This document shows positions 21,930 through 40,340 of a stretch of 64,000 nucleotides of DNA, in pieces. The notes under the pieces are model-generated. The model was not told where the DNA came from. It ran no database searches and saw nothing but the letters and a program-made list of their open reading frames with translations. Position 1 is the stretch's first letter. Every line of letters begins with the position of its first letter. The stretch covers positions 310,001 to 374,000 of the forward strand of contig NZ_BMYU01000003.1 of assembly GCF_014652435.1 (NCBI RefSeq), read 5' to 3'. Origin of the DNA: Cognatundibacterium squillarum. GTDB taxonomy: Bacteria > Pseudomonadota > Gammaproteobacteria > Burkholderiales > Burkholderiaceae_D. The translations under genes were made by a program, and so were the position numbers.

Positions 21930-21959
21930 AAAAAAACCGCCGGACACAGGCCGGCGGTT
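21930..21959 (-). terminator. Terminator of the branched-chain-type ABC transporter operon
   Basis: Nine-base-pair stem AACCGCCGG/CCGGCGGTT with a seven-base loop, followed on the minus strand by a seven-T run. It lies about 20 bases after the livM-like stop. Confidence 0.9.
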
Positions 21960-21980: not shown

Positions 21981-22961
21981 TCAGCCGGATGCGGCCGTTC
22001 TGCGAGACTGCCACCAGGCGACCAGCTCGCCCACCAGCCCGCGCCGGAACAGCAGCACGCACAGTACGAAGATCAGACCGAGCACCATGGTCACCGAATC
22101 ACCAAGGCTGCGGAACCATTCGATGCGGGTAAGATCTGCCAGCGCCATACCGATTTCGCCCATCTTGTCTTCCAGCGCAATGATCAGGATTGCACCGACC
22201 ACCGGCCCGGTCAGCGTGCCGACACCACCAACCAGCGTCATCAGCACTACCAGTCCGGACATCGTCCAGTGCACATCACTGAGCGTCGCAAAGCCGAGCA
22301 CCAGCGCTTTCAGCGCCCCTGCCAGCCCTGCCAGTGCCGCCGACAATACAAAGGCCAGCAGCTTGATCTGATCGGCATGAAAGCCCAGCGAAACCGCCCT
22401 CGCCTCGTTATCGCGCACTGCCTTCAGGACTTGCCCGAACGGCGAATGTACGATGCGCACGACCAGCAGAAATCCAGCCACCGTCAGCGCCAGCACCAGA
22501 TAATACAAATGCAAATCCTGACCCAGATCGATGAAGCCGAGCAGACGGCCACGCGGTATGCCCTGCAAACCATCTTCGCCACCAGTGAACTTCGCCTGCA
22601 GAAACACGAAATACAGCATCTGTGCCAGCGCCAGCGTAATCATGGTGAAGTAAATCCCCTGCCGCCGTATCGCCAGCCAGCCGACCACCAGCCCGGTCAG
22701 CGCCGCAAACAACACTGCCAGTACCAGCCCTGCCTCTACCGGTAATCCGGCATCGCGCATTGCCCAGCCAGCCACATAGGCCGCGCCGCCAAAGAATGCT
22801 GCGTGTCCAAACGAGTTCAGTCCGGTAAAACCCAGCAGTAAATTGAAAGCACAGGCGAACAGGCAGAAGCACAGCACCTTCATCAGAAACACCGGATACA
22901 GCAGCAAAGGCGCCAGCAACAAGCCACCCACAACCAGAACAGCAAAAAGTTTTTGTCGCAT
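21981..22961 (-). CDS. Branched-chain amino acid-type ABC transporter permease (LivM-like)
   Basis: 326-residue inner-membrane permease. It contains the LivM/LivH signature GFTGLNSFGHAAFFGGAAYVA and a C-terminal LTLVGGVGTLTGPVVGA. Last gene of a five-gene operon (ATPase, ATPase, binding protein, permease, permease), 10 bases after the other permease. The Liv family also carries other amides and acids, so the substrate is open. Confidence 0.92.
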   Translation of the reverse strand: MRQKLFAVLVVGGLLLAPLLLYPVFLMKVLCFCLFACAFNLLLGFTGLNSFGHAAFFGGAAYVAGWAMRDAGLPVEAGLVLAVLFAALTGLVVGWLAIRRQGIYFTMITLALAQMLYFVFLQAKFTGGEDGLQGIPRGRLLGFIDLGQDLHLYYLVLALTVAGFLLVVRIVHSPFGQVLKAVRDNEARAVSLGFHADQIKLLAFVLSAALAGLAGALKALVLGFATLSDVHWTMSGLVVLMTLVGGVGTLTGPVVGAILIIALEDKMGEIGMALADLTRIEWFRSLGDSVTMVLGLIFVLCVLLFRRGLVGELVAWWQSRRTAASG

Positions 22962-22971
22962 GGTGGTCTCC

Positions 22972-23856
22972 TTATTTCTCTTTGCCGAACAAACCGGCAG
23001 GCCGCACCAGCAACACCAGCGCCATGATGATGAAGACCACGGTCGAGGAAATTTCCGGATAAAAGACTTTGGTCAGACCTTCAATAACACCGAGCGCCAG
23101 ACCGGTCAGCACCGATCCGAGGATGGAACCCATGCCACCGATCACCACCACCGCGAATACCGTGATGATCAGATTCGAGCCCATCAGCGGCGATACCTGA
23201 ATCACCGGCGCTGCCAGCACACCGGCCAGCGCCGCCAGCGAGACGCCGAAACCATAGGTCAGCGTCACCATCAGCGGCACATTAATGCCGAAGGCTTCCA
23301 CCAGCCGCGGGTTTTCCGTACCGGCGCGCAGATAAGCACCGAGCCGGGTTTTCTCGATCAGGAACCAGGTGGAAAAGCAGACCACCAGCGATGCCACCAC
23401 CACCCAGGCGCGGTAGTTCGGCAGAATCATGAAGCCGAGATTGGTCGCGCCGCTCAGCGCTTCCGGCACCGAGTAAGGCTGACCGGAGACGCCGTACACC
23501 GAACGGAATGCGCCTTCCAGCATCAGCGTTAGACCAAAGGTCAGCAACAGGCCGTATAAATGATCCAGCTGATACAGGCGGCGCAGCATGGTGCGTTCGA
23601 TCAGCATGCCGAAGGCGCCGACCAGCAGCGGTGCCAGCACCAGCATCAGCCAGTAATTCAGTCCCAGATATTCCAGCCCCATCCAAGCCAGAAATGCACC
23701 GGCCATGTACAGAGCACCGTGCGCAAAGTTAATGACATTCAGCAAGCCAAAGATCACGGCCAGCCCGAGTGACAGCATCGCGTAAAACGAGCCATTGACC
23801 AGACCGAGCAATAACTGGCTCAGCAAAGCCTGTAAGGGAATCCCGAACAAATCCAT
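22972..23856 (-). CDS. Branched-chain amino acid-type ABC transporter permease (LivH-like)
   Basis: 294-residue permease with the family stretch GLVNGSFYAMLSLGLAVIFG followed by LLNVINFAHGALYMAGAFLAW, and a C-terminal VIGGMGSILGSVLTGL. I use the ATG at 23856 (MDLFGIPLQ), with GGAG upstream, rather than one 14 codons earlier whose leading residues are not family-like. It pairs with the following permease in a heterodimer. Confidence 0.92.
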   Translation of the reverse strand: MDLFGIPLQALLSQLLLGLVNGSFYAMLSLGLAVIFGLLNVINFAHGALYMAGAFLAWMGLEYLGLNYWLMLVLAPLLVGAFGMLIERTMLRRLYQLDHLYGLLLTFGLTLMLEGAFRSVYGVSGQPYSVPEALSGATNLGFMILPNYRAWVVVASLVVCFSTWFLIEKTRLGAYLRAGTENPRLVEAFGINVPLMVTLTYGFGVSLAALAGVLAAPVIQVSPLMGSNLIITVFAVVVIGGMGSILGSVLTGLALGVIEGLTKVFYPEISSTVVFIIMALVLLVRPAGLFGKEK

Positions 23857-23987
23857 TGATGCACCATCTCCGTCGTGCACAATCTGCGACTTGTACACAG
23901 CCGCAGATTGTCAGATTAAAAACACTCTCAGATCAGCCGCTTCTCCCCGCCGCACTGCGTTTCACGGCGCAACGGGGATAAGCCGGA

Positions 23988-25196
23988 TTATTTCCACAGG
24001 CTGCATTTGGATTCTGCTTTGGTGGTGAACGCCTGTTCACCCGGAATGGTCTGGATCACTTTGTAGTAATCCCACGGTTCTTTGGATTCTGATTGCGGTT
24101 TCACCTGCATCAGATACATATCCTTGATCACACTGCCGTCGGCGCGCAGATATCCATCGCGGATATAAAAGTCTTTGAATTTCATGCTGCGCAGTTTGGC
24201 CATCACTTTCTCCGTATCATCCGAACCGGCCGCTTTAACGGCGTTCAGGTATTGCATGGTGGCGGAGTAATCAGCAGCCTGCAGACTGGATGGCATTTTT
24301 TTCATCTTTTCGAAATAACGGCGCGCCCAAGCGCGGGCTTCCGGTGTCTGGTTCCAGTACCAGCTGTCGGTCAGATACATGCCCTGCGTTGCGTTCAGCC
24401 CTAAGGAACGGATATCGTTAATGAACATCAGCAAACCGGCCAGCTTCATGGTTTTGGTCACGCCGAATTCATTTGCCGCTTTGACTGCATTGATCGTGTC
24501 ACCACCGGCATTGGCGAGACCCAGAATCTGGGCTTTGGATGCCTGCGCCTGTAACAGGAAGGACGAAAAATCTGAAGCAGACAAAGGATGTTTGACGGTG
24601 CCGGACACTGTGCCGCCGTTCGCTTTGACAACTTTCGCAGTATCCGATTCCAGCGCCGCACCAAACGCGTAATCCGCGGTCAGGAAATACCAGGACTTAC
24701 CGCCCTGCTTCACCACCGCAGCACCCGTGCCCTTAGCCAGTGCGACAGTGTCGTAGGCGTAATGCAGGGTGTAAGGCGAACACTCTTCATTGGTCAGCAC
24801 CGCAGTACCGGCACCGATGGAAATGAACGGACGTTTTTTCTCGGCCGCGATTTTTGCCATCGACAAAGCTGCACCCGAGTTGGTACCGCCGATCAGCATA
24901 TCCACACCTTCGCGGTCAAACCATTCACGCGCTTTGGATGCCGCGATATCGGCTTTGTTCTGGTGGTCGGCTGTGACTAATTCAATCTTTTTCCCCAGCA
25001 CCGTACCGCCAAAATCTGCAATCGCCATGCGGATCGCTTCTGCGCCGCCCTTACCGTCAATATCGGAATACACGCCGGATACGTCGGTGATAAAGCCGAT
25101 TTTCACCACATCACCGGATACCTGCGCCTGTGTGCTGGCATGCACACTGAGAGTGGCCGCGACGGCCAGGCTGAGAACTTTCCATTGCAGTTTCAT
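23988..25196 (-). CDS. Periplasmic substrate-binding protein of the ABC transporter
   Basis: 402-residue class of Liv/urea/amide-binding proteins. A signal peptide (MKLQWKVLSLAVAATLSVHASTQA) precedes the mature N-terminus VSGDVVKIGFITDVSGVYSD. The GGTNSGAALSMAKIAAEKK motif follows. Start at 25196 with GGAG at good spacing; the 13 codons upstream are not signal-like. It lies between the LivF-like ATPase and the LivH-like permease. Ligand cannot be deduced; neighbours suggest a carboxylate or amino-acid-like compound. Confidence 0.92.
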   Translation of the reverse strand: MKLQWKVLSLAVAATLSVHASTQAQVSGDVVKIGFITDVSGVYSDIDGKGGAEAIRMAIADFGGTVLGKKIELVTADHQNKADIAASKAREWFDREGVDMLIGGTNSGAALSMAKIAAEKKRPFISIGAGTAVLTNEECSPYTLHYAYDTVALAKGTGAAVVKQGGKSWYFLTADYAFGAALESDTAKVVKANGGTVSGTVKHPLSASDFSSFLLQAQASKAQILGLANAGGDTINAVKAANEFGVTKTMKLAGLLMFINDIRSLGLNATQGMYLTDSWYWNQTPEARAWARRYFEKMKKMPSSLQAADYSATMQYLNAVKAAGSDDTEKVMAKLRSMKFKDFYIRDGYLRADGSVIKDMYLMQVKPQSESKEPWDYYKVIQTIPGEQAFTTKAESKCSLWK

Positions 25197-25250
25197 TTGC
25201 TGACTCCAGACTGGGTTAAACAAGAATGTGCACAAGCTGTGCGTTATGCA

Positions 25251-25282: not shown

Positions 25283-25990
25283 TCAGACGCCGAGTAACTG
25301 ATGCAGGACGGGCATTTTTTCACTGAGCGCAGTTGCGGCAAACTGTTCGACGATGGTGCCGTGTTCCATCACATAAAAATGATCAGCCAGCGGCGCGGCA
25401 AAGCGGAAGTTCTGTTCCACCATCACAATGGTGTAACCCTGCTGCTTGAGCGTGGTGATCATGCGTGCCAGTGCCTGCACAATCACCGGCGCCAGCCCTT
25501 CCGAGATTTCATCCAGCAACAGCAAACGCGCTCCGGTACGCAGAATCCGCGCGACTGCCAGCATTTGCTGTTCTCCGCCGGACAAGCGCGTTCCCTGACT
25601 CTGACGTCGTTCGTACAGGTTAGGGAACATTGCATAAATTTCATCTAATGACATACCGGCCGTTTCACGTGAAACCCGTGGCGGCAGTAACAGATTTTCT
25701 TCAGCGGATAAGGATGAAAATATGCCGCGCTCTTCGGGGCAGTAGCCCACACCCAGATGCGCGATTTTGTGGGTCGCCAGATGGATGGCTTCCTGTCCGT
25801 GTATACGTACTGATCCGCTGCGGCGTCCGGTCAGCCCCATCACGGCACGTAAGCTGGTGGTGCGGCCCGCACCATTGCGCCCGAGCAGTGTTACCACCTG
25901 CCCGGCTTTTACCTGCATATTCACGCCATGCAGAATATGCGATTCACCATACCATGCCTGCAGATCGCGGATTTCCAGTGCATAGCTCAT
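25283..25990 (-). CDS. ABC transporter ATPase (LivF-like) with altered Walker A
   Basis: 235-residue ATP-binding subunit. The signature LSGGEQQMLAVARIL and Walker B LLLLDEISEGLAP are intact. The P-loop at 37-45 reads GRNGAGRTT, with Arg43 where the invariant Lys should be; I checked this against the nucleotides (CGC codon). The partner ATPase is normal, so this would be an asymmetric pair. The gene contains a parS core (25662-25675), and its start overlaps the upstream stop by four bases. Confidence 0.92.
   Translation of the reverse strand: MSYALEIRDLQAWYGESHILHGVNMQVKAGQVVTLLGRNGAGRTTSLRAVMGLTGRRSGSVRIHGQEAIHLATHKIAHLGVGYCPEERGIFSSLSAEENLLLPPRVSRETAGMSLDEIYAMFPNLYERRQSQGTRLSGGEQQMLAVARILRTGARLLLLDEISEGLAPVIVQALARMITTLKQQGYTIVMVEQNFRFAAPLADHFYVMEHGTIVEQFAATALSEKMPVLHQLLGV
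25661..25676. promoter_or_regulatory. parS-like site inside the LivF-like gene
   Basis: The 14-base core GTTTCACGTGAAAC is a perfect palindrome and matches parS; only the outermost base on each side differs. It lies about 5 kb from the consensus sites. Confidence 0.65.
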
Positions 25991-26760
25991 CCGTGTGCTC
26001 CCTGCAGTTCTGTATCGCTGCTGCCCATATACGCTTCCATCACACGCGGGTCAGCGGATACCTCGGCATAGCTGCCTTCCGCCAGTAATGCGCCGCGCTG
26101 CAATACCGAGATACGGTCACAGATACCGGACACCACCTGCATATTGTGTTCCACCATCAGGATGGTGCGGCCTTTGGACACGCGCTGTATCAGCTCAGTG
26201 ACGCGGTGTACATCTTCATGTCCCATGCCCTGCGTCGGTTCATCAAGCAGCATCAGTTCCGGCTCCATCGCCAGCGTGGTCGCGATTTCCAGCGCTCGCT
26301 TGCGGCCATACGGTAAGTCCACGGTTTTCACACCTGCCAGTGCCGCCAGATCCACGGTTTCCAGCAATGCCATCGCCTGTGCATCCCATTGTTTCAGCAC
26401 GTGGTCGCTGCGCCAGAACTGGAAGCTGCTGCCAAAGCGGCGCTGCAAACCGATACGCACATTCTCGAGCACGCTCAGATGCGGAAATACTGCCGAAATC
26501 TGAAATGAACGGATAATGCCCAGCCGCGCCACCTGTACCGGTGTCAGCCCGGTGATGTCACGTCCGTTGAATAAGATCTGGCCGGAAGTCGGTGCCAGAA
26601 AGCGGGTCAGTAAGTTGAAACAAGTCGTTTTACCGGCGCCGTTGGGGCCGATCAGCGCATGAATATGTCCGCGCCGGACTTGCAGATTGACTTCACTGAC
26701 GGCGGTGAATCCCTTGAATTCACGCGTCAGCTGACGGGTCTCCAGGATGACATCAGTCAT
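25987..26760 (-). CDS. ABC transporter ATPase (LivG-like)
   Basis: 257-residue ATPase, first gene of the transporter operon. Walker A GPNGAGKT at 38-45 is normal, the signature is LPYGRKRALEIA and Walker B is LMLLDEPTQGMGHED. It overlaps the LivF-like gene by four bases. The 272 bases upstream hold the likely promoter and a small hairpin at 26856-26881. Confidence 0.93.
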   Translation of the reverse strand: MTDVILETRQLTREFKGFTAVSEVNLQVRRGHIHALIGPNGAGKTTCFNLLTRFLAPTSGQILFNGRDITGLTPVQVARLGIIRSFQISAVFPHLSVLENVRIGLQRRFGSSFQFWRSDHVLKQWDAQAMALLETVDLAALAGVKTVDLPYGRKRALEIATTLAMEPELMLLDEPTQGMGHEDVHRVTELIQRVSKGRTILMVEHNMQVVSGICDRISVLQRGALLAEGSYAEVSADPRVMEAYMGSSDTELQGAHG

Positions 26761-27032: not shown

Positions 27033-28667
27033 CTATGCGCCGGACAACACATCCTGCAACATCATTTGTGCGGCTTTTTCCGCAATCATCAGCGTCGGTG
27101 AATTGGTGTTACCGGAAGTAATCTGCGGCATTACCGATGCATCCGCGATACGCAAACCACGCAAGCCGCGCACCCTTAAGCGACTGTCAGTGACCGCCTG
27201 CGCATCATCTGCTTTGCCCATGCGGCAGGTGCCGGACGGATGAAAAATCGTCGTGCCGATCTCACCGGCGGCATGCTGCAATTCCTGCTCAGTCTGACAA
27301 TGCAGACCGGGGCGTATCTCTTCCGGCTGATATGCCTGCAATGCCGGTGCTGCAACAATACGGCGCGTCAGACGTAATGCCTGTGCCGCCACCTGCCGGT
27401 CATATTCAGTACCCAAATAATTCGGCGCAATCTGCGGTGCCTGCTGCGGATCAGGGCTGCTGATCTGCACCGTCCCGCGTGACGTCGGACGCAAATGGCA
27501 AACGCTGGCGGTGAAGGCCGGAAACGGATGTAAAGGATCACCGAATTTATCCAGCGATAAAGGCTGCACATGATATTGCAAATCCGGTGTGGCTACCGAT
27601 GCATCTGAACGGGTGAACAAACCCAGCTGCGACGGTGCCATCGCCATCGGTCCGCTCTGGCGCAACAGATATTCCAGACCAATCGCCGCTTTATTCCACC
27701 AGTGCTGCGTTAATCCATTCAGGGTTGGCACGCCCTGCACCTTGTACACAGAACGCAATTGCAAATGATCCTGCAGGTTTTTCCCGACGCCCGGCAGCGT
27801 ATGCAGCGGCGTAACACCCGCCGCTTGCAGATGTGCCGGATCGCCGATACCGGATAATTGCAACAGTGCCGGACTGCCAATCGCGCCTGCTGCCAGCACG
27901 GTTTCGCGCCGTGCCTGCGCCTGCCAGCGTGTACCGCCGCCGGTGAACTGCACACCGGTACAACGGGTGGCATCGTTGACGTCATCGAACAATAAACGCT
28001 CTGCCTGACAGCCGGTCATGATGGTCAGATTCGGCCGGCGCGATGCTTCGCGCAAATAGGCTTTGGTGGTGTTCCAGCGTATACCGCGTTTCTGGTTCAC
28101 TTCAAAATACGCACTGCCTTCGTTATCGCCACGGTTAAAGTCTTCGGTGTAGGGAATACCGGTTTCAGCTGCCGCAGCACGGAAAGCATCGAGAATTTTC
28201 CACGACAGACGCTGCTTTTCCACGCGCCACGGCCCGCCGCTGCCATGCCAGCGATCTTCGCCACCATGATAATCTTCACTGAGACGGAACCATTCCAGTA
28301 CCTTATCCCAGCGCCAGCTGTCATCACCGCAAACATCTGCCCAGTGGTCGTAATCACTGGCTTGTCCGCGCATATAAATCATGCCGTTAATCGAGGAGCA
28401 GCCACCCAGCACTTTACCGCGCGGATATAACAGACTGCGCCCGTGTAAGCCCGGTTCAGCGGCGGTACGGTACATCCAGTCCGTGCGCGGATTGTTAATG
28501 CAGTACAGATAGCCGACCGGCACATGTATCCACAGATAATCATCCTTACCACCCGCTTCGATCAGCAATACTTCATGCTGCGGACTGGCGGATAAACGAT
28601 GCGCCAGCGCACAGCCGGCGGTACCGCCACCGACCACAATAAAGTCATAAATTCCGGCAGACTGCAT
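27033..28667 (-). CDS. GMC-family FAD-dependent alcohol/choline dehydrogenase
   Basis: 544-residue flavoprotein of the glucose-methanol-choline family. The FAD fold VVGGGTAGCALAHRL is near the N-terminus, the ribose-binding LIEAGG follows, then GGCSSINGMIYMRG. The active-site His is in FHPSGTCRMG, with the Asn partner in TSGNTNSPTLMIAEKAA. ATG 28667 has GGGAGA seven bases upstream. It is third in a row after mmsA-like and nitronate monooxygenase genes, which suggests it oxidises an alcohol feeding the same pathway (inference). Choline dehydrogenase is the usual automatic name, but no betB or betI lies nearby. Confidence 0.9.
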   Translation of the reverse strand: MQSAGIYDFIVVGGGTAGCALAHRLSASPQHEVLLIEAGGKDDYLWIHVPVGYLYCINNPRTDWMYRTAAEPGLHGRSLLYPRGKVLGGCSSINGMIYMRGQASDYDHWADVCGDDSWRWDKVLEWFRLSEDYHGGEDRWHGSGGPWRVEKQRLSWKILDAFRAAAAETGIPYTEDFNRGDNEGSAYFEVNQKRGIRWNTTKAYLREASRRPNLTIMTGCQAERLLFDDVNDATRCTGVQFTGGGTRWQAQARRETVLAAGAIGSPALLQLSGIGDPAHLQAAGVTPLHTLPGVGKNLQDHLQLRSVYKVQGVPTLNGLTQHWWNKAAIGLEYLLRQSGPMAMAPSQLGLFTRSDASVATPDLQYHVQPLSLDKFGDPLHPFPAFTASVCHLRPTSRGTVQISSPDPQQAPQIAPNYLGTEYDRQVAAQALRLTRRIVAAPALQAYQPEEIRPGLHCQTEQELQHAAGEIGTTIFHPSGTCRMGKADDAQAVTDSRLRVRGLRGLRIADASVMPQITSGNTNSPTLMIAEKAAQMMLQDVLSGA

Positions 28668-28686
28668 ACAGTTATCTCCCATTGCA

Positions 28687-29721
28687 TCAGGACGACGGAT
28701 GCATCAGTTGCTGCACCAGTTCTGCCGCCGGCAATCGCTGACAACGGGCGACACCCTGCCCCGCCCACAAGGACATCAGCTCCGGATTGTCATGACGTGC
28801 CGCCTCGGCGCGAATCGCGGTGGTCAGCGCATTCTGTACCGGATAAGCCGGAACCTGATCCGCATGCTTATCCAGCAAACGCATCAGCCGGTTATCCAGC
28901 CCGCGTGCCAGCCGACCGGAAATCGCGCGGGTCTGGCGTGTGGTATCGCTGCTGGCAGCCAGCAGGCGCTCTTTATACACTTCCGGAATACCGGACTCCT
29001 GACAGCACAGAAACGCCGTTCCGAGCTGCGCCAGCGCAGCGCCTTCCGCACGGATCTGCGCGATATCCTGTGCGGACATCAGGCCACCGGCGGCAATCAG
29101 CGGTATGCGGATATGCGGCAGACACTGCGCCAGTAATTCGTGCAAGCCCAGCGTTGCGGCTTCCTGCCTTCCGATAAACGTACCGCGATGTCCGCCCGCC
29201 TCCGTGCCTTGCAGACACACCGCATCAGCCCCCATCGCCTGCCAGACCTGCGCTTCCGCCAGCGTCGTGGCGGTTCCCACCACCAGAATACCGGCATCAT
29301 GCAAACGCTGAATCTGACTGCCATGCAGCACATCAAAGGTAAAACTGGCGACGGCTGGTCGCGCGGTAATCACCGCTTCCAGCTGCTCTTCAAAATCCAG
29401 ACACCAGCGCGCTGGTACCGGTACGCTGTCCCAACCAAGTTCATGACAAAACGGACGCAACAGGGCGCGCGCAGCTTCCACATCCTCGTCTGCCGGACGC
29501 GGGCGACAGAGGACGAATAAATTAATGGCGAAAGGCTTATCCGTCAGGCGACGAATCAGTTCTGCCTGCTCGATAATCGCCAGCGGCGGCAGCAATGCAG
29601 CCGCCAGCGAGCCCAGCCCGCCAGCCTGTGATACTGCCGCCACCAGCTCCGGTGTGGTTGCACCACCCGCCATCGGTGCCTGAATCAGCGGCAGCGGGCA
29701 CAGCGAAAGAAAGTCCTGCAT
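28687..29721 (-). CDS. Nitronate monooxygenase (class I type)
   Basis: FMN-dependent enzyme that oxidises alkyl nitronates. The 344-residue TIM barrel shows the class I signature QAPMAGGATTPELVAAVSQAG, then NLFVLCRP and the phosphate-binding GTEAGGHRGTFIG, and IPLIAAGGL. Known class I members act on propionate-3-nitronate and produce malonate semialdehyde plus nitrite or nitrate. CGGAG lies before the ATG. It sits 53 bases after the semialdehyde dehydrogenase gene and 19 before the GMC gene, so the three form an operon. Confidence 0.9.
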   Translation of the reverse strand: MQDFLSLCPLPLIQAPMAGGATTPELVAAVSQAGGLGSLAAALLPPLAIIEQAELIRRLTDKPFAINLFVLCRPRPADEDVEAARALLRPFCHELGWDSVPVPARWCLDFEEQLEAVITARPAVASFTFDVLHGSQIQRLHDAGILVVGTATTLAEAQVWQAMGADAVCLQGTEAGGHRGTFIGRQEAATLGLHELLAQCLPHIRIPLIAAGGLMSAQDIAQIRAEGAALAQLGTAFLCCQESGIPEVYKERLLAASSDTTRQTRAISGRLARGLDNRLMRLLDKHADQVPAYPVQNALTTAIRAEAARHDNPELMSLWAGQGVARCQRLPAAELVQQLMHPSS

Positions 29722-29774
29722 GATGTCTCCGAATTGTTAGGATTGTGGTTAAGCCATGCAAACGACAAGAACAA

Positions 29775-31262
29775 TTACTTCGCCACCGGCATCGTAAATT
29801 CTGCCCCTTTTGCGATGCTGTCCGGCCAGCGCTGCATCACCGATTTATAGCGGGTATAAAAGCGCACACCGTCTTCGCCGTAAGCATGCAGATCACCGAA
29901 CAGCGAGCGTTTCCAGCCACCAAAGGAATGCCATGCCATCGGCACCGGAATAGGGACATTCACACCCACCATACCGACCTGTACACGGCGGCTGAATTCA
30001 CGAGCGGTATTACCATCCGAGGTAAATAAAGAAACGCCGTTACCAAACTCGTGCAGGTTAATCAGTTCCAGCGCAGCGGCAAAATCCGGTACACGTACCA
30101 CGCACAATACCGGTCCGAAAATTTCTTCACGGTGGATGGTCATGCCTTCTCTGACATGATCAAACAAGGTGCCGCCGAGGAAAAATCCCTGCTCATGTCC
30201 GGCGACAGTCAGTTCGCTGCCATCCACCAGACATTGCGCACCTTCTTCTTTTCCTTTCTGAATATACGACTTAATTTTTTCTTTATGTGCAGCTGTAATG
30301 ACAGGTCCCATTTCGGATTGTTCATCCATGCCATTACCGATGCGTAAGGCTTTTACGCGCGGAATCAGCGCCTGTACCAGATCATCGGCAACAGCGCCGA
30401 CAGCCACTGCCACCGAGATCGCCATACAGCGTTCACCGGCAGAACCGTAAGCTGCACCCATCAGTGCATCGACTGCCTGTTCCAGATTCGCATCCGGCAT
30501 CACGACCAGATGGTTTTTCGCGCCGCCAAGTGCCTGTACCCGTTTTCCGTGACGTGTTCCTTCTGAATAAATATATTCAGCAATCGGTGTGGAACCGACG
30601 AAGGATAAGGCCGCCACCTGCGGATGACTGATCAAACGGTCAACTGCGGTTTTATCGCCCTGCACTACATTGAACACACCGTCCGGTAAGCCAGCCTGTT
30701 TCAGCAAGCGGGCAATCAGTAAAGAACAGGAAGGATCACGTTCGGATGGTTTCAGAATAAAACTGTTACCGGTGGCCAGCGCCAGCGGTGCCATCCACAT
30801 CGGTACCATGAAAGGAAAATTAAACGGCGTGATACCCGCCGTCACCCCCAGCGGCTGGCGCAGGTTGTAGTTATCAATACCACCGCCGATATTGTCGGAA
30901 AACTGGGTTTTCAGCAGTTGCGGCATACCGCAGGCAAATTCCACCACTTCGATGCCGCGCGTCACTTCACCCATCGCATCAGAAAATACCTTGCCGTGTT
31001 CTGCGGTAATCAGTGCCGCAATTTCGCGGTGATGCTGATCGAGTAATTCTTTAAAACGGAACATCACCCGTGCACGACGCAGCGGCGCGGTTTCTGCCCA
31101 TTCCGGTGCAGCAGCTGCCGCTGCCGCAATCGCCTGATCAACGATGGCGGTGTCTGCCAGTACCACCTGTTCTGTGACCTGACCGGTGGCCGGGTTATAC
31201 ACAGGCTGGCAGCGGCTGCCTTCCGGTACCAGTGTTTGTCCGTTAATCCAGTGTCCTATCAT
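29775..31262 (-). CDS. mmsA: CoA-acylating methylmalonate-semialdehyde dehydrogenase
   Basis: 495-residue ALDH-superfamily enzyme that converts methylmalonate or malonate semialdehyde to propionyl- or acetyl-CoA with loss of CO2. Catalytic Cys279 is in GSAGERCMA. The usual ALDH general base Glu is replaced by Asn250 in GGAKNH, a mark of this CoA-acylating branch. ATG 31262 has AAGGAG and is preferred over upstream in-frame starts. It is divergent from a LysR gene 127 bases away and leads an operon with nitronate monooxygenase and GMC genes; a valine-catabolism role is the alternative. Confidence 0.95.
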
Positions 31263-31389
31263 CCGAGTTCTCCTTGCTGTTATCCGGTTGAGCTTACGCA
31301 AAGGCTTAACAGAAATCCAATCAGTCTTTATCAATGAACATATAAAACATGCTTATAATTACCAAAAAGATACTTTTAACAGGATAACA
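31263..31389. promoter_or_regulatory. Divergent promoter/operator region, mmsA-like operon and lysR
   Basis: AT-rich 127-base gap. A dyad TTTAT-N10-ATAAA at 31327-31346 resembles LysR-type T-N11-A operators. Position suggests that the LysR protein controls both directions; this is inference. Confidence 0.4.
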
Positions 31390-32298
31390 ATGGATCTGAT
31401 TCAGTTACGTGCTTTTGCCGCCGTTGCCCGTGAAGGCAATCTGACCCGTGCAGCGGAAAAACTGCATGTGACCCAGCCAGCAGTCAGTCTGCAGCTGAAA
31501 GCACTGCAGGAAGAATTGCAATTGCAGTTATTCACACGCGGCGGCAGCGGTATGACGCTGACAGAGCATGGTGCGAAGTTACAACCGTTTGCCGAGAGGG
31601 CACTGGCCAGCGCACAGGAATTCCGGCAGGCGGCGCTGGCGCTGTGCTCCACTGTTTCCGGCGAACTGGCGATCGGCACCATCCTCGATCCGGAATTCAC
31701 GCGGCTGGGCATGTTCCTGAAACGGCTGGTAGAAAGTTATCCGCAGTTATCCACAAGACTGCAGCACGGCATGTCGGGTCAGGTGCTGCAAGCTCTGCGA
31801 CAAGGCCAGCTGGACGTCGGCTTTTATCTCGGCGAATTACCTGTGGATTGCGCGGAGGCTATCCACAGCGTGACGCTGACGCAATTCACTTACCGTGTGC
31901 TGGCACCGGCAGGGTGGCAACAACGGGTACAGGGAAAAAACTGGGAACAACTGGCGCAATTGCCATGGATATGGACACCGCCGGAGTCTGTGCATTCGCG
32001 TCTGCTGTTACCGATTTTTGCACAAGCCGGCGTACAACCGCATCAGGTGGCACTGGTAGATCAGGAACCGAGCATGCTGGATCTGGTGAAATCCGGTGTC
32101 GGATTGAGCTTAATCCGCGAATCGATCGCGGTGCGCGAAGCACAAACCCATGATCTGGTGATTGCCGACAGCGTGAGTCTGCAAACCGGTATGCATTTCA
32201 TCTGCGATCAGAAACGCGCCGAAGAACCGGTAATCGCTGCGGCGCTGCATCTGATTCAGCAGTGCTGGCACAGCGTTCCCAGCCTGCCTGACCTGTAA
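31390..32298 (+). CDS. LysR-family transcriptional regulator
   Basis: 302-residue regulator with an N-terminal winged helix (MDLIQLRAFAAVAREGNLTRAAEKLHVTQPAVSLQLKALQ) and a substrate-binding domain with VKSGVGLSLIRES in the effector half. I chose ATG 31390 because it begins at the conserved family start; an upstream ATG would overlap the divergent mmsA gene. It probably regulates the divergent semialdehyde dehydrogenase-nitronate monooxygenase-GMC operon in response to a pathway intermediate. Confidence 0.92.
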   Translation: MDLIQLRAFAAVAREGNLTRAAEKLHVTQPAVSLQLKALQEELQLQLFTRGGSGMTLTEHGAKLQPFAERALASAQEFRQAALALCSTVSGELAIGTILDPEFTRLGMFLKRLVESYPQLSTRLQHGMSGQVLQALRQGQLDVGFYLGELPVDCAEAIHSVTLTQFTYRVLAPAGWQQRVQGKNWEQLAQLPWIWTPPESVHSRLLLPIFAQAGVQPHQVALVDQEPSMLDLVKSGVGLSLIRESIAVREAQTHDLVIADSVSLQTGMHFICDQKRAEEPVIAAALHLIQQCWHSVPSLPDL

Positions 32299-32499
32299 GC
32301 TTGTGGATTTCTGCCAACATGATCCGCGAATGACTGTGGCTATTTCTGATGAAATACAATGCAAACTGATTCCTCTCAGCAATGCAATTCGCATACACCG
32401 CTATAATAATTGCCCGCTTCCGGCGCGCCGCATCCGTCCGGGCAGCGATACCGCGTCGCGCAGTCTGCTGTTCACCGTTACTCAACTATCAGGTATACC

Positions 32500-33231
32500 G
32501 TGCTGAAAGTATTGTCGATTCCCCTTCTCGCCGTTTCCCTGTCTGCCAGCGCCGGCGCACAGGCGCAAAGCATACAACTGTATATTCAGGAATACGGGCC
32601 GTTCACTCATACGGATCCGCAAAGCGGTGAAATCCGGGGATTTCTGACGGAAAAAGTCGCGGAAATCATGAAGCGTTCCAAAGAAACACCGGTGTTCACC
32701 AGTACCTCACTGGCGCGCGGACTGAATGCTGCGCTGACTGAATCAAATGCCTGTCTGTTCGGTTTCCGGCGCACACCGGAACGCGAAAAATTCTTTCAGT
32801 GGGTAGGCCCGCTGACCACAGACACCTGGGTACTGTACAAACGCCGCGACGACCCGCGCATGCTGAAGCAATTTGAAGATGCAAAGCCCTACAGCATAGG
32901 CTCGTACAAAAATGCCGCCACCGGCCTGCAACTGACCGAACAGGGTTACAACATTCAATTTGCCAGCACCGATGAAGATAATCCGCGTCTGCTGATTAAC
33001 AAACGTCTGGATTACTGGATTGTGTCCGAACTGCACGGTATGTTTCTGGCGCAACAGCAAGGCATCGGCAATGACATCGTCCGCGCCGTCAAATACCGCC
33101 AGATCGAGTTATACATGCTGTGCTATCCGGGCATGGATAAACAGCGCATCGAGAATTTCAACCGTATCAATAAAGAGCTGGACCACGAAGGCCTGACTGA
33201 AAAACTGCAACGTAAATACGGCATACGCTGA
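32500..33231 (+). CDS. Periplasmic amino-acid-type (SBP_bac_3) solute-binding protein, orphan
   Basis: 243 residues. A signal peptide covers about 1-23 (LLAVSLSASAGAQAQS), followed by a type 3 binding-protein fold with CLFGFRRTPEREKFFQWVGPL and YSIGSYKNAATGLQL. Translation probably begins at GTG 32500, with AGG just upstream. No permease or ATPase is nearby, so it may serve another transporter or act as a sensor. Weakly recognised; ligand unknown. Confidence 0.8.
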   Translation: MLKVLSIPLLAVSLSASAGAQAQSIQLYIQEYGPFTHTDPQSGEIRGFLTEKVAEIMKRSKETPVFTSTSLARGLNAALTESNACLFGFRRTPEREKFFQWVGPLTTDTWVLYKRRDDPRMLKQFEDAKPYSIGSYKNAATGLQLTEQGYNIQFASTDEDNPRLLINKRLDYWIVSELHGMFLAQQQGIGNDIVRAVKYRQIELYMLCYPGMDKQRIENFNRINKELDHEGLTEKLQRKYGIR

Positions 33232-36844: not shown

Positions 36845-36963
36845 GCATCACCTGTAGCCTGTCCGTTGTGACTGACAGGCTTCACACAATCTTCACCAAA
36901 CTGTCACCAGATTGTCATTCTGATCTCCTATTGTGTTTTCACACAACAAACAGGAGACTTCCC

Positions 36964-38178
36964 ATGACAAGCAAAGCCCTGATCGACAGCGCCGTCATCA
37001 ATTCCACTACCGCAGGCAGTAAAGGTCTGGCAGACCGTCTGTTCGCACACTGGTTCAGTCGCCTCGTCTACGCACAGATTTGGGAAGATCCGCAATCGGA
37101 TATCGATGCGCTGCAACTGGAACCCGGTTCGCGCATTCTGACCATTTCTTCCGGCGGCTGTAATGCCCTGGCTTACCTGAGCACACGCCCGTCGGTCGTG
37201 CACGCAGTGGATCTGAATGCCGCCCATCTTGCCATGCTGAACATCAAACAGCAGGCGATCCGCCATCTGCCGGATTACCAGTCAGTACTGAGTTTTCTCG
37301 GCGATGCCGGTCAGGAAGATAATCTGAAACGGTATCAGCGCCATATCCGCGAACATCTGGACAGCAATGCCCGTGCATTCTGGGAGAAGCGCAGCATGAA
37401 TGGGAAACCACGTTATCATTATTTCACCCGTCAGACTTATCAGCACGGTCTGCTCGGCGAATTTATCGGTTTGTCGCACTGGCTGGCACGCCGGCTTGGC
37501 GGTGATCTGAGCAAAATGATGGAAGCACGTGATCTGCAGGATCAGGCAAGATTGTTCGATCAGTATGTGGCACCGGTATTCGACACCGCCTTTTTCCGCT
37601 GGATTGCACGTCAGCCTGTAGCCTTGTACAGCCTCGGTATTCCGCCATCGCAGTTTGAAGAATTACGCAAAGATGCACCGGACGGTCTGCATTTACTGTT
37701 CCGTGAGCGCATGCGTCATCTGGCCTGCGATTTCCCGCTGAACGAAAACTGCTTTGCACATCAGGCATTCGCACGCCGCTATGACACCAGCTGCCAGACC
37801 GCATTGCCGCTGTATCTGCAGGAACAGCATTTCCAGGCAATCCGCAGCCATATCGACCGCGTGCATGGCCATCACACCACGCTGACCGCCTTCCTGCAAC
37901 ACCAGCCGAATAACAGTCTGGATGCATATCTGTTTCTGGATGCGCAGGACTGGATGGATCAGGGCCAGCTGACCGGTTTATGGCGCGAAGTCACCCGTAC
38001 CGCCACACAAGGCGCCCGTGTCGTGTTCCGCACCGGTGGCAGCCAGTCACCGCTGGAAGAAAAACTGCCGTCGGGGATTCTGCAGCAATGGGAAACCGAT
38101 CCGGAACATAACCGCCGCCTGTACGCGACCGACCGCTCTGCCATCTACGGCGGTATGCATCTGTACCGCAAACGCTGA
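36964..38178 (+). CDS. BtaA-like (DUF3419) 3-amino-3-carboxypropyl transferase
   Basis: 404-residue protein of the DUF3419 family. The N-terminal IWEDPQSDIDALQL is followed by the SAM-binding region RILTISSGGCNALAYL and VHAVDLNAAHLAMLN, as in BtaA, which transfers the 3-amino-3-carboxypropyl group of SAM to diacylglycerol to make the homoserine head group of betaine lipids. The C-terminal GARVVFRTGGSQSPLEE is also typical. CAGGAGACTTCCC supports ATG 36964. No N-methyltransferase (BtaB) follows; the downstream gene, 17 bases on, is GNAT-like, so the lipid product may be different. Confidence 0.85.
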   Translation: MTSKALIDSAVINSTTAGSKGLADRLFAHWFSRLVYAQIWEDPQSDIDALQLEPGSRILTISSGGCNALAYLSTRPSVVHAVDLNAAHLAMLNIKQQAIRHLPDYQSVLSFLGDAGQEDNLKRYQRHIREHLDSNARAFWEKRSMNGKPRYHYFTRQTYQHGLLGEFIGLSHWLARRLGGDLSKMMEARDLQDQARLFDQYVAPVFDTAFFRWIARQPVALYSLGIPPSQFEELRKDAPDGLHLLFRERMRHLACDFPLNENCFAHQAFARRYDTSCQTALPLYLQEQHFQAIRSHIDRVHGHHTTLTAFLQHQPNNSLDAYLFLDAQDWMDQGQLTGLWREVTRTATQGARVVFRTGGSQSPLEEKLPSGILQQWETDPEHNRRLYATDRSAIYGGMHLYRKR

Positions 38179-39358: not shown

Positions 39359-40340
39359 AACTGCCCTCATCTCACCAAAAACTCTCCTGAAACCCGCTAA
39401 AAAAACAGTCTGTTTTCCTGTGGAAAAGCACTGGCTTTATCCACGGAAAATTTGGGGACAACACTGCATCTTTTCAGGCTGCATATTTTTATCCCGAAAC
39501 TGCCAGCAATTCTTACATGGCTTATCAATAGCTCTGTACAGGCACTAAGTGACTGTAAACGTGGATGTTTACGTACTTATCCACAACAAACCACCTGCGT
39601 TAACTATCTCTACTACAGATATATATATCTATTAAATTCATACAAAAGCATCGGGAAAATTTTTGCAGACAAATGTCTTTTCCAAAAAATCCAACTCAGT
39701 CACTTTTAAAACCAGACGGTCTTTTTTTTTATTTTTTCAGCTTGTCTCCAAACTTTCCTTTTTTGAAAAGTTCAGCAATGCACTTTTGATCACTCCTCAC
39801 CCTGAAATACCGGTTTTTTTTCTGAAGACCATCGCAAAACACCAAAAATGACCGTTCAACATCGTAAACGCGACAAAAAAACGGGCTGGTGAAAAATATT
39901 TTTGTGGATAACCCTGCTCATATCCCCTGCAATCTTTGTGATCAACTACTGGTTTACGCAAAACCGGATTTTTTGTTCAGTTAACGTCCGCCCTTTTTAC
40001 AGACTTTCTGCAAAACCTTATCCTGAAAGTAAACATTTGATTTTGTGGATGTTTACCAAGTTATCCACAAAAAGAACGCCCGTTAACCATTACTACCATT
40101 TTTGTATACAGTTATTCATTCTTAAGCTATCCACAGCCATTTTTCAGGCACTCGCTTTTTGCAAAAAAGGGCTTTAGAATCCGTGACTTAGAAAAGCCAG
40201 CACGCTAAATGACGATGCATCAGGCAGTATTGGGAGTACTGCGTCTGCAGCTTTTACGTGAATAAACTTGAACTTTTCCACCGGTGAACTAGGTTTTCTC
40301 TGTTTGCATTTTTGATTCCTCATCAGGAACGGAGAAAACC
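39359..40340. other. AT-rich, DnaA-box-containing non-coding region; candidate replication origin
   Basis: About 1 kb without a convincing gene. Exact DnaA boxes are at 39577-39585 (TTATCCACA), 39903-39911 (TGTGGATAA) and 40061-40069 (TTATCCACA). One-mismatch boxes are at 39419-39427, 39437-39445 and 40127-40135. Long T/A tracts lie at 39715-39745 and 39815-39850, as expected for an unwinding element. Four exact boxes elsewhere in genes show that the motif is common here. dnaA, dnaN and rpmH are not in the window, so origin function is inference. Confidence 0.5.

What the first reader, a model, noticed from the sequence alone, without database searches (positions are those of the whole stretch)
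27033..32298. Possible operon for 3-nitropropanol/3-nitropropionate catabolism with LysR control
A CoA-acylating (methyl)malonate-semialdehyde dehydrogenase, a class I nitronate monooxygenase and a GMC alcohol oxidoreductase form a tight operon (gaps of 53 and 19 bases), divergent from a LysR gene. Class I nitronate monooxygenases turn propionate-3-nitronate into malonate semialdehyde, the substrate the dehydrogenase can convert to acetyl-CoA; the GMC enzyme could oxidise the nitroalcohol. I see the genes and order; the pathway is inferred. The Liv-type transporter just downstream could be the importer.
Basis: partly seen in the sequence, partly recalled or inferred. Interest (0 to 1): 0.72.

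Follow-up and report, generated by a model that had tools for sequence, protein, structure and literature searches.

The report
3-hydroxypropionate operon carrying nitronate monooxygenase gene

Summary
Genes, order, strands and gaps are as described; the genome is an Undibacterium. The pathway reading is only partly right. LysR, the CoA-acylating semialdehyde dehydrogenase, the GMC enzyme and LivGFKHM match, in sequence and order, a Cupriavidus necator locus arranged like the published hpdR/mmsA-hpdH locus for 3-hydroxypropionate (3-HP) and share its promoter element. So the GMC gene is most likely hpdH (3-HP dehydrogenase), not a nitropropanol oxidase, and the transporter often follows hpdH with or without the nitronate monooxygenase (NMO). 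The unusual part is the NMO before hpdH. The 32 NMO rows from loci with hpdH, mmsA or Liv neighbours form one clade, patchy on the hpdH tree. It has four of five residues reported for a class I NMO but lacks the Lys. Best reading: 3-HP (via HpdH) and propionate-3-nitronate (via NMO) both give malonate semialdehyde, which MmsA turns into acetyl-CoA. The 3-HP part is well supported; the NMO substrate is inferred. I saw no paper describing the combination.

The parts
31390..32298 (+). lysR, HpdR-type regulator (302 aa), divergent from the operon
   Evidence: LysR HTH and substrate domains; 57% identical to the LysR next to mmsA in Cupriavidus necator UYPR2.512 (L163).
31313..31346 (-). conserved operator-like element in the lysR-mmsA spacer (consensus CTTATATT-N4-TTGATAATAACTCATTGGATTT, preceded by ATAAG)
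   Evidence: 5 of 30 mismatches; next best in the window 11; 20 shuffles of this spacer gave at least 12; its 22-base part is the only match in 64 kb (3 mismatches allowed), 0 in 100 shuffles; only match in the own genome. C. necator locus also 5 of 30.
29775..31262 (-). mmsA, CoA-acylating (methyl)malonate-semialdehyde dehydrogenase (495 aa)
   Evidence: TIGR01722 over cut-off; 75% identical to the C. necator mmsA at L163; next best aldehyde dehydrogenase in the genome only 33% identical.
28687..29721 (-). nmo, nitronate monooxygenase family protein of a subfamily linked to hpdH (344 aa)
   Evidence: PF03060 264 bits; nearest solved structures 3bw2, 5lsm, 4q4k; one clade of 32 rows from loci with hpdH, mmsA or Liv neighbours; residues.
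27033..28667 (-). hpdH, GMC-family 3-hydroxypropionate dehydrogenase (probable)
   Evidence: GMC_oxred_N/C; 65% identical to the GMC gene of the C. necator locus with the same neighbours.
25987..26760 (-). livG-like ABC ATPase
   Evidence: 76% identical at the same place in C. necator.
25283..25990 (-). livF-like ABC ATPase
   Evidence: 77% in C. necator.
23988..25235 (-). periplasmic binding protein of the Liv-type importer (TTG-start frame; the true start may lie inside)
   Evidence: Peripla_BP_6 375 bits; closest solved structure 3i09, 630 bits; 74% in C. necator.
22972..23898 (-). livH-like permease
   Evidence: 81% in C. necator.
21981..22961 (-). livM-like permease
   Evidence: 69% in C. 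necator.
21935..21959 (-). intrinsic-terminator-like hairpin at the end of the eight-gene run
   Evidence: 9 pairs, 7 G-C, T tail. A consensus match only; the scan found 20 such sites where shuffles gave a mean of 11.

Best explanation
This is an HpdR-type LysR-controlled 3-hydroxypropionate (3-HP) utilisation operon, mmsA-nmo-hpdH-livGFKHM, into which an NMO gene has been built between mmsA and hpdH. Proposed working: the Liv-type importer brings in a small acid such as 3-HP; HpdH (GMC flavoenzyme) oxidises it to malonate semialdehyde; MmsA converts that with CoA and NAD+ to acetyl-CoA and CO2; HpdR senses 3-HP and switches the genes on. The NMO gives a second entry to the same aldehyde: propionate-3-nitronate (the anion of the plant and fungal toxin 3-nitropropionate) is oxidised to malonate semialdehyde plus nitrite or nitrate. 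Shown here: gene content, order, likeness to the characterised locus, shared operator, one clade of NMOs from such loci. Inferred: all substrates, one transcript, induction.
For: Cupriavidus necator UYPR2.512 (named locus L163) has LysR (57%), MmsA (75%), GMC (65%) and LivGFKHM (69-81%) in the same order without NMO. Passages of PMC6572756 and PMC5431877 describe this arrangement in strain H16: LysR gene, mmsA, then a gene annotated choline dehydrogenase (hpdH) 27 bp further; mmsA2 and hpdH up 156- and 154-fold on 3-HP, hpdH deletion delaying growth on 3-HP by about 100 h. A GMC/MMSDH pair is up 119- and 116-fold on 3-HP in Halomonas, and its GMC gene is needed to use 3-HP as sole carbon source. 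The operator is shared: 22 of the 30 spacers outside the alignment from which the consensus was read match with at most 7 of 30 mismatches, C. necator with 5, and no shuffle of any of the 46 spacers scored below 10; it is unique in the own genome. Among 106 GMC orthologs in 145 genomes the commonest layout is MMSDH-GMC without NMO (53), then GMC with neither seen (30), NMO-GMC (15), MMSDH-NMO-GMC (8). The NMO link is specific: 32 NMO rows from loci with hpdH, mmsA or Liv neighbours are one clade, SH-aLRT 100, 1 change, 0 of 500 shuffles as low. P3N to malonate semialdehyde to acetyl-CoA is an established route (PMC9552603 passages; Nishino 2010 recalled, not held).
Against: The NMO lacks the lysine and the second tyrosine of PaNMO (Thr and Asn) and has Thr where PaNMO has His133, so its substrate may differ from P3N. 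NMO is absent from most hpdH loci seen, so it is no core part of 3-HP use. 15 NMO-hpdH loci have no mmsA beside them, and 20 such loci scanned lack the operator. In G009 the NMO follows mmsA but no hpdH or Liv gene is found in the 2.6 kb after it. Half of the named GMC loci were not seen to have Liv genes downstream (34 without, 6 too short to tell, of 80). I compared with C. necator UYPR2.512, not with strain H16 itself. The Pseudomonas HpdR half-site pattern was not found at the promoter. No activity or expression was measured.
Confidence: 0.6

Rival explanations
1. The NMO is a passenger for detoxification. It oxidises some other nitronate (or an unknown substrate) and its product does not feed MmsA; it sits in the 3-HP operon only for expression.
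For: Residues W97, W106, C107, Q186 and Y249 (window numbering) invariant in 32 of 32 rows of the clade and less common outside it, and absence of the PaNMO lysine, suggest a substrate of its own. Presence is patchy: 9 changes on the GMC tree. 15 loci have NMO-hpdH with no adjacent mmsA.
Against: Of the 27 best family NMO hits, 24 sit next to the GMC gene, 1 (G002) lies at a contig end behind mmsA, 1 (G009) lies behind mmsA with no hpdH seen, and 1 (G133) sits directly before Liv genes: a tight and apparently old link to enzymes of malonate semialdehyde metabolism. From recall (Su 2019, not held), single changes of the PaNMO tyrosines or lysine hardly affect P3N turnover.
Confidence: 0.27
2. 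One reading: a dedicated 3-nitropropanol/3-nitropropionate operon in which the GMC enzyme oxidises 3-nitropropanol and the Liv system imports nitro compounds.
For: Gene content allows it; NMO, MmsA and a LysR gene together would suit P3N use (a passage seen says that in other nitropropionate-degrading Pseudomonas the genes form an operon near a regulator).
Against: GMC, Liv, LysR, mmsA and the operator occur together without NMO in many genera, and a locus of the same arrangement is a proven 3-HP locus in C. necator H16.
Confidence: 0.07
3. The operon serves another small hydroxy acid (for example 3-hydroxybutyrate or a 3-HP precursor); HpdH and the importer have drifted from 3-HP in Undibacterium.
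For: P. putida HpdR also responds to both 3-hydroxybutyrates (abstract); 65% identity to the C. necator GMC gene leaves room for change.
Against: mmsA kept in the operon, conserved operator, and lack of a second MmsA and of a 3-hydroxyisobutyrate dehydrogenase over its cut-off point to malonate semialdehyde.
Confidence: 0.06

Closest known systems
Cupriavidus necator hpdR / mmsA2-hpdH 3-HP locus (PMC6572756, PMC5431877)
   Same: Divergent LysR, mmsA first, GMC hpdH next; in strain UYPR2.512 Liv genes after it and the same operator.
   Different: No NMO between mmsA and hpdH.
Pseudomonas denitrificans / P. putida hpdH and mmsA-hbdH operons with LysR regulators (PMC4617489, PMC6441110, PMC5431877)
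   Same: HpdH, MmsA and LysR activators responding to 3-HP (passages).
   Different: hpdH and mmsA lie in two operons; the published P. putida element is not seen at this promoter.
Halomonas DddA/DddC (PMC7940609)
   Same: Choline-dehydrogenase-annotated enzyme with CoA-acylating MMSDH, induced by 3-HP (passages).
   Different: No NMO in the five Halomonadaceae loci seen (L174, L175, L181, L191, L203); DMSP genes were not sought in the window.
Pseudomonas aeruginosa PaNMO (4q4k) and propionate-3-nitronate monooxygenases
   Same: Same profile family; catalytic His183 equivalent and M20, N69, Y254, Y299 kept.
   Different: Has other residues at Tyr109, His133, Tyr303 and Lys307; outside the clade.
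2-nitropropane dioxygenase of structure 3bw2
   Same: Best sequence match among solved structures (206.5 bits); also lacks the lysine.
   Different: Has His133; outside the clade of the window's NMO.

Membership tests
HpdR-mmsA-hpdH 3-HP operon | CoA-acylating methylmalonate-semialdehyde dehydrogenase | tested here: met
   TIGR01722 678 bits, cut-off 448.5; 75% to C. necator.
HpdR-mmsA-hpdH 3-HP operon | GMC-type hpdH orthologous to the Cupriavidus gene, same neighbours | tested here: met
   65% identity and shared order with L163; compared with strain UYPR2.512, not H16.
HpdR-mmsA-hpdH 3-HP operon | Divergent LysR gene and shared operator | tested here: met
   57% LysR identity; operator 5 of 30 mismatches in both window and C. 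necator.
HpdR-mmsA-hpdH 3-HP operon | mmsA directly followed by hpdH | tested here: not met
   NMO lies between them; this is the variant feature, the other tested parts are met.
HpdR-mmsA-hpdH 3-HP operon | 3-HP dehydrogenase activity and induction by 3-HP | not testable with these tools
   Needs enzyme and reporter assays.
Nitronate monooxygenase family (PF03060) | Family profile and catalytic His | tested here: met
   264 bits, cut-off 28; His183 equivalent in every row printed.
Class I nitronate monooxygenase | Active-site set Met, Asn, His, Tyr, Lys (PsNMO Met18, Asn67, His176, Tyr297, Lys305; PMC11510023 passages) | tested here: not met
   Four of five present; Lys is Thr in the window and Thr, Gly, Ala or Ser in the clade. 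The match of PsNMO to PaNMO numbering is my inference; the four motifs that the paper mentions were not seen and not tested.
Class I nitronate monooxygenase | Turnover of propionate-3-nitronate | not testable with these tools
   Needs purified enzyme.
Valine degradation (mmsA with 3-hydroxyisobutyrate dehydrogenase) | 3-hydroxyisobutyrate dehydrogenase in the genome | tested here: not met
   Best match 138.5 bits against a cut-off of 291.6; only one MmsA. Other valine genes not sought.
DMSP use (DddA/DddC) | DMSP-cleaving gene nearby | not tested
   No search made.

The most novel reading that the evidence does not exclude
A lineage of Oxalobacteraceae has built a new NMO subfamily into its 3-HP regulon, so that one regulator, one importer and one MmsA treat the toxin 3-nitropropionate as a nitro analogue of 3-HP: both acids are taken up and merged at malonate semialdehyde, turning detoxification into feeding.
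Probability: 0.35. Interest if true: 0.6.

Novelty: new variant of a known kind. Interest (0 to 1): 0.42.

Why it matters
3-nitropropionate is a widespread toxin of legumes and fungi, and the authors of PMC9552603 offer a new genetic marker for its breakdown as something of use (passages). If the NMO does feed malonate semialdehyde, its hpdH-linked clade is a further simple marker for bacteria able to use it, and it would show how a feeding operon gains a toxin-using branch by one gene. The operator found here would also help those who use 3-HP sensors, since it marks probable HpdR targets in Burkholderiales. If the NMO does something else, the finding still corrects a reading: the GMC gene in this run is most likely hpdH.

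Tried and rejected
Valine degradation as the role of mmsA: rejected. FabK-type enoyl reductase as the identity of the NMO: 123 bits against a cut-off of 453, rejected. Choline dehydrogenase proper as the identity of the GMC gene: both models stay under their cut-offs (576 of 605; 485 of 732). The aldehyde-dehydrogenase hits of 26-30% upstream of many relatives looked at first like a second semialdehyde dehydrogenase; in three of the four loci read (L049, L057, L059) they fall inside very long frames on the same strand (1,042, 1,050 and 1,225 aa) that I take for PutA by length and hit, without a family search; in L067 the longest frame called there is on the other strand, so it does not show this; the rest I only assume. 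The P. putida HpdR element: no site at the promoter; 9 matches in the window where 4.8 are expected. A paper on the solved structure 3i09 was sought and not found. A palindrome scan of the spacers gave nothing in 43 of 46; the alignment did better. Structure prediction was not run, since a fold would not settle the substrate.

Weak points. The GMC tree is a FastTree tree in which the window row pairs with a long branch (L116), so its place there is not trusted; L118 (G002) was labelled as without NMO although its NMO lies at the end of another contig. Adjacency was scored on rows copied by hand: I left out 19 second GMC copies of 43-52% identity, all NMO hits after the 27 best, and MMSDH rows that by eye lie on other contigs or far away; rows beyond the printed lists were not seen, and contig ends may hide neighbours among the 30 'neither' cases. 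Of the 83 NMO-free GMC places (53 + 30) I read 39. The operator consensus was read from 16 spacers; four of these 16 (L085, L097, L098, L100) themselves match with 8 or more mismatches, some through a one-base shift; C. necator L163 and L161 were on view in the same call but in a separate alignment. In one search one of the 23 GMC loci (L118) had only 40 bases to scan.

Of the 95 family genomes with an NMO hit I read the neighbourhood of 40 hits besides the window: 26 lie with hpdH, mmsA or Liv genes and 14 do not. The weaker hits were not examined. Nine class hits were listed including the window itself; of the other eight, none has hpdH, mmsA or Liv nearby.
Full report
What is there. Profiles name them at family level: CoA-acylating methylmalonate-semialdehyde dehydrogenase (TIGR01722, over its cut-off), nitronate monooxygenase (PF03060), GMC oxidoreductase, LysR. 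Downstream on the same strand come two Liv-type ATPases, a periplasmic binding protein and two permeases, then a terminator-like hairpin. Between the GMC gene and livG the scan shows only one weak hairpin on that strand (5 pairs, 3 G-C), so an eight-gene transcript is possible but not shown.

Whose genome. The window is contig 3, bases 310001-374000, of a 4.19 Mb genome.

The known core. I searched 145 genomes of the family for each protein and scored adjacency. Of 106 places with a close GMC ortholog, 53 have MMSDH directly before it and no NMO, 8 have MMSDH-NMO-GMC, 15 have NMO-GMC without MMSDH, and in 30 neither was seen. Liv genes (three or more subunits) follow the GMC gene in 20 of 22 NMO-bearing GMC loci (1 too short to tell, 1 without), in 27 of 39 NMO-free family loci read (3 too short, 9 without), and in 40 of 80 named loci from wider groups (6 too short, 34 without; 6 of the 40 have NMO). 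In Rhizobiales and their kin several have Liv genes on the other side of the GMC gene. So the GMC-Liv link is wider than the NMO link.

The match to a characterised locus. Cupriavidus necator UYPR2.512 has LysR, MmsA, GMC and LivGFKHM in the same order. Passages of two papers describe that arrangement of the first three in strain H16: LysR gene, mmsA, then 27 bp later a gene annotated choline dehydrogenase, named hpdH; mmsA2 and hpdH rise 156- and 154-fold on 3-HP, and loss of hpdH delays growth on 3-HP by about 100 h (PMC6572756; PMC5431877). A GMC/MMSDH pair is also induced by 3-HP in Halomonas, where the GMC gene is needed to use it as sole carbon source (PMC7940609 passages). I therefore call the window genes hpdR, mmsA and hpdH. 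I take UYPR2.512 and H16 to hold the same locus; H16 itself was not compared.

The operator. The spacer between lysR and mmsA holds a conserved stretch. Scored as a 30-position pattern, the window matches with 5 mismatches; its next best site in 64 kb has 11, and 20 shuffles of its spacer have at least 12. Of 46 spacers, 34 match with at most 7 mismatches; of the 30 outside the alignment from which the consensus was read, 22 do, C. necator with 5. The eight held-out misses are L156, L095, L099, L102 and four Halomonadaceae (L174, L175, L181, L191). A 22-base part occurs once in the window and in 0 of 100 shuffles, once in the whole own genome, and once each in 5 of 7 further genomes of the genus. 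Of these five, four have the full LysR-MMSDH-NMO-GMC layout and one contig ends beside LysR. One of the four is the U. hunanense locus that had gone into the consensus, so three are new. The 20 scanned NMO-GMC loci without mmsA lack the element (13 or more mismatches), as do the 23 GMC loci with neither (12 or more; one had only 40 bases to scan).

The odd part: the NMO. Of the 27 best NMO hits in the family, window included, 24 adjoin the GMC gene (23, plus G108, seen beside a cut GMC gene). G002 lies at a contig end behind mmsA. G133 lies directly before Liv genes. G009 lies behind mmsA, but the 2.6 kb after it show no hpdH or Liv gene. In a tree of 57 NMO rows, the 32 from loci with hpdH, mmsA or Liv neighbours form one clade (SH-aLRT 100), apart from the 25 others. 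On the tree of 141 GMC rows (28 with NMO), NMO presence needs 9 changes, against 26 for shuffled labels; starred branches force 4. So the link probably arose once and was then lost or passed on several times; the count cannot tell which. The 14 next-best family loci read and the eight class-level hits lack hpdH, mmsA and Liv neighbours.

Is it a class I enzyme? With PaNMO as ruler, the window has M20, N69, H183, Y254, Y299 but C109, T133, N303 and T307 where PaNMO has Y, H, Y and K. M20 is not kept in three rows of the clade (L054, L062, L137 have Thr). A paper on a class I enzyme lists Met, Asn, His, Tyr and Lys as active-site residues (PMC11510023 passages); the window has four of five. The clade has its own invariant W97, W106, C107, Q186 and Y249 (window numbering, 32 of 32 rows; C107 and Y249 also occur in 8 of 25 outside rows each). 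From recall of papers I could not read (Su 2019; Salvi 2014), single changes of the PaNMO tyrosines or lysine had small effects on P3N turnover, so the gap does not exclude P3N, but it makes the substrate an open question.

How it most likely works. 3-HP enters by the Liv system (inferred), HpdH makes malonate semialdehyde (the need for the gene is shown by mutants in Cupriavidus and Halomonas), MmsA makes acetyl-CoA, HpdR responds to 3-HP (shown for Pseudomonas relatives). NMO adds propionate-3-nitronate as a second source of malonate semialdehyde (the reaction is known for other NMOs; here inferred). I put about 0.85 on the 3-HP operon and about 0.5 on the NMO step, 0.6 on the whole as stated.

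What is new. The 3-HP operon is known, and the P3N to malonate semialdehyde route is known (PMC9552603 passages). In my searches (listings, open-licence PMC papers) I saw no paper that reports an NMO inside the 3-HP operon; in the two papers on the Cupriavidus locus the words nitronate and nitropropane do not occur in the main text. It is a new variant of a known kind, of moderate interest, with a clear and cheap test.

Noticed in passing
window 39450-40200 (exact DnaA boxes at 39577, 39903, 40061); and L049, L054, L057, L059, L061, L066, L105, L107, L120, L131, L135 upstream of NMO or GMC (for example L059:7014-7750): Clusters of exact DnaA boxes (TTATCCACA), pairs of them about 158 bases apart, next to AT-rich runs, look like a chromosomal replication origin. 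In Massilia/Duganella/Janthinobacterium-type genomes the cluster lies directly beside NMO or hpdH; in the window a like stretch lies about 7 kb from lysR, in a 55-56% AT gap between frames. In the single-contig genome G106, sampled GC skew is mostly negative from 1.3 Mb to this place (3.63 Mb) and mostly positive after it, weakly. Runs of three or more TAG units were found in only 2 of 8 loci checked and not in the window.
   Followed up: partly
L110:10407-11426: G061 has hpdH-Liv with only a 45-residue remnant match to mmsA and a broken-up lysR match beside it, while G083, close by on the GMC tree, has lysR directly beside hpdH: the loss of mmsA looks recent there.
   Followed up: no
window 36868-38178: Frame that looks, from memory of the family, like a BtaA-type enzyme for betaine lipids (DUF3419); not searched.
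   Followed up: no
window 32410-33231 (+): Small periplasmic solute-binding protein (SBP family 3, 26.6 bits against a cut-off of 26.4) next to lysR, kept beside lysR in several other Undibacterium loci; role unknown.
   Followed up: no
L170, L172, L177, L184, L190, L193-L196, L199, L201, L202: In many Rhizobiales/Rhodobacterales loci the GMC gene follows, rather than precedes, a Liv-type transporter of about 50-73% identity: the pair is kept with the order turned round.
   Followed up: no
G009 contig 472 (L068): mmsA-NMO pair with no hpdH or Liv gene in the 2.6 kb that follow; the long frames seen there are mostly on the other strand.
   Followed up: partly
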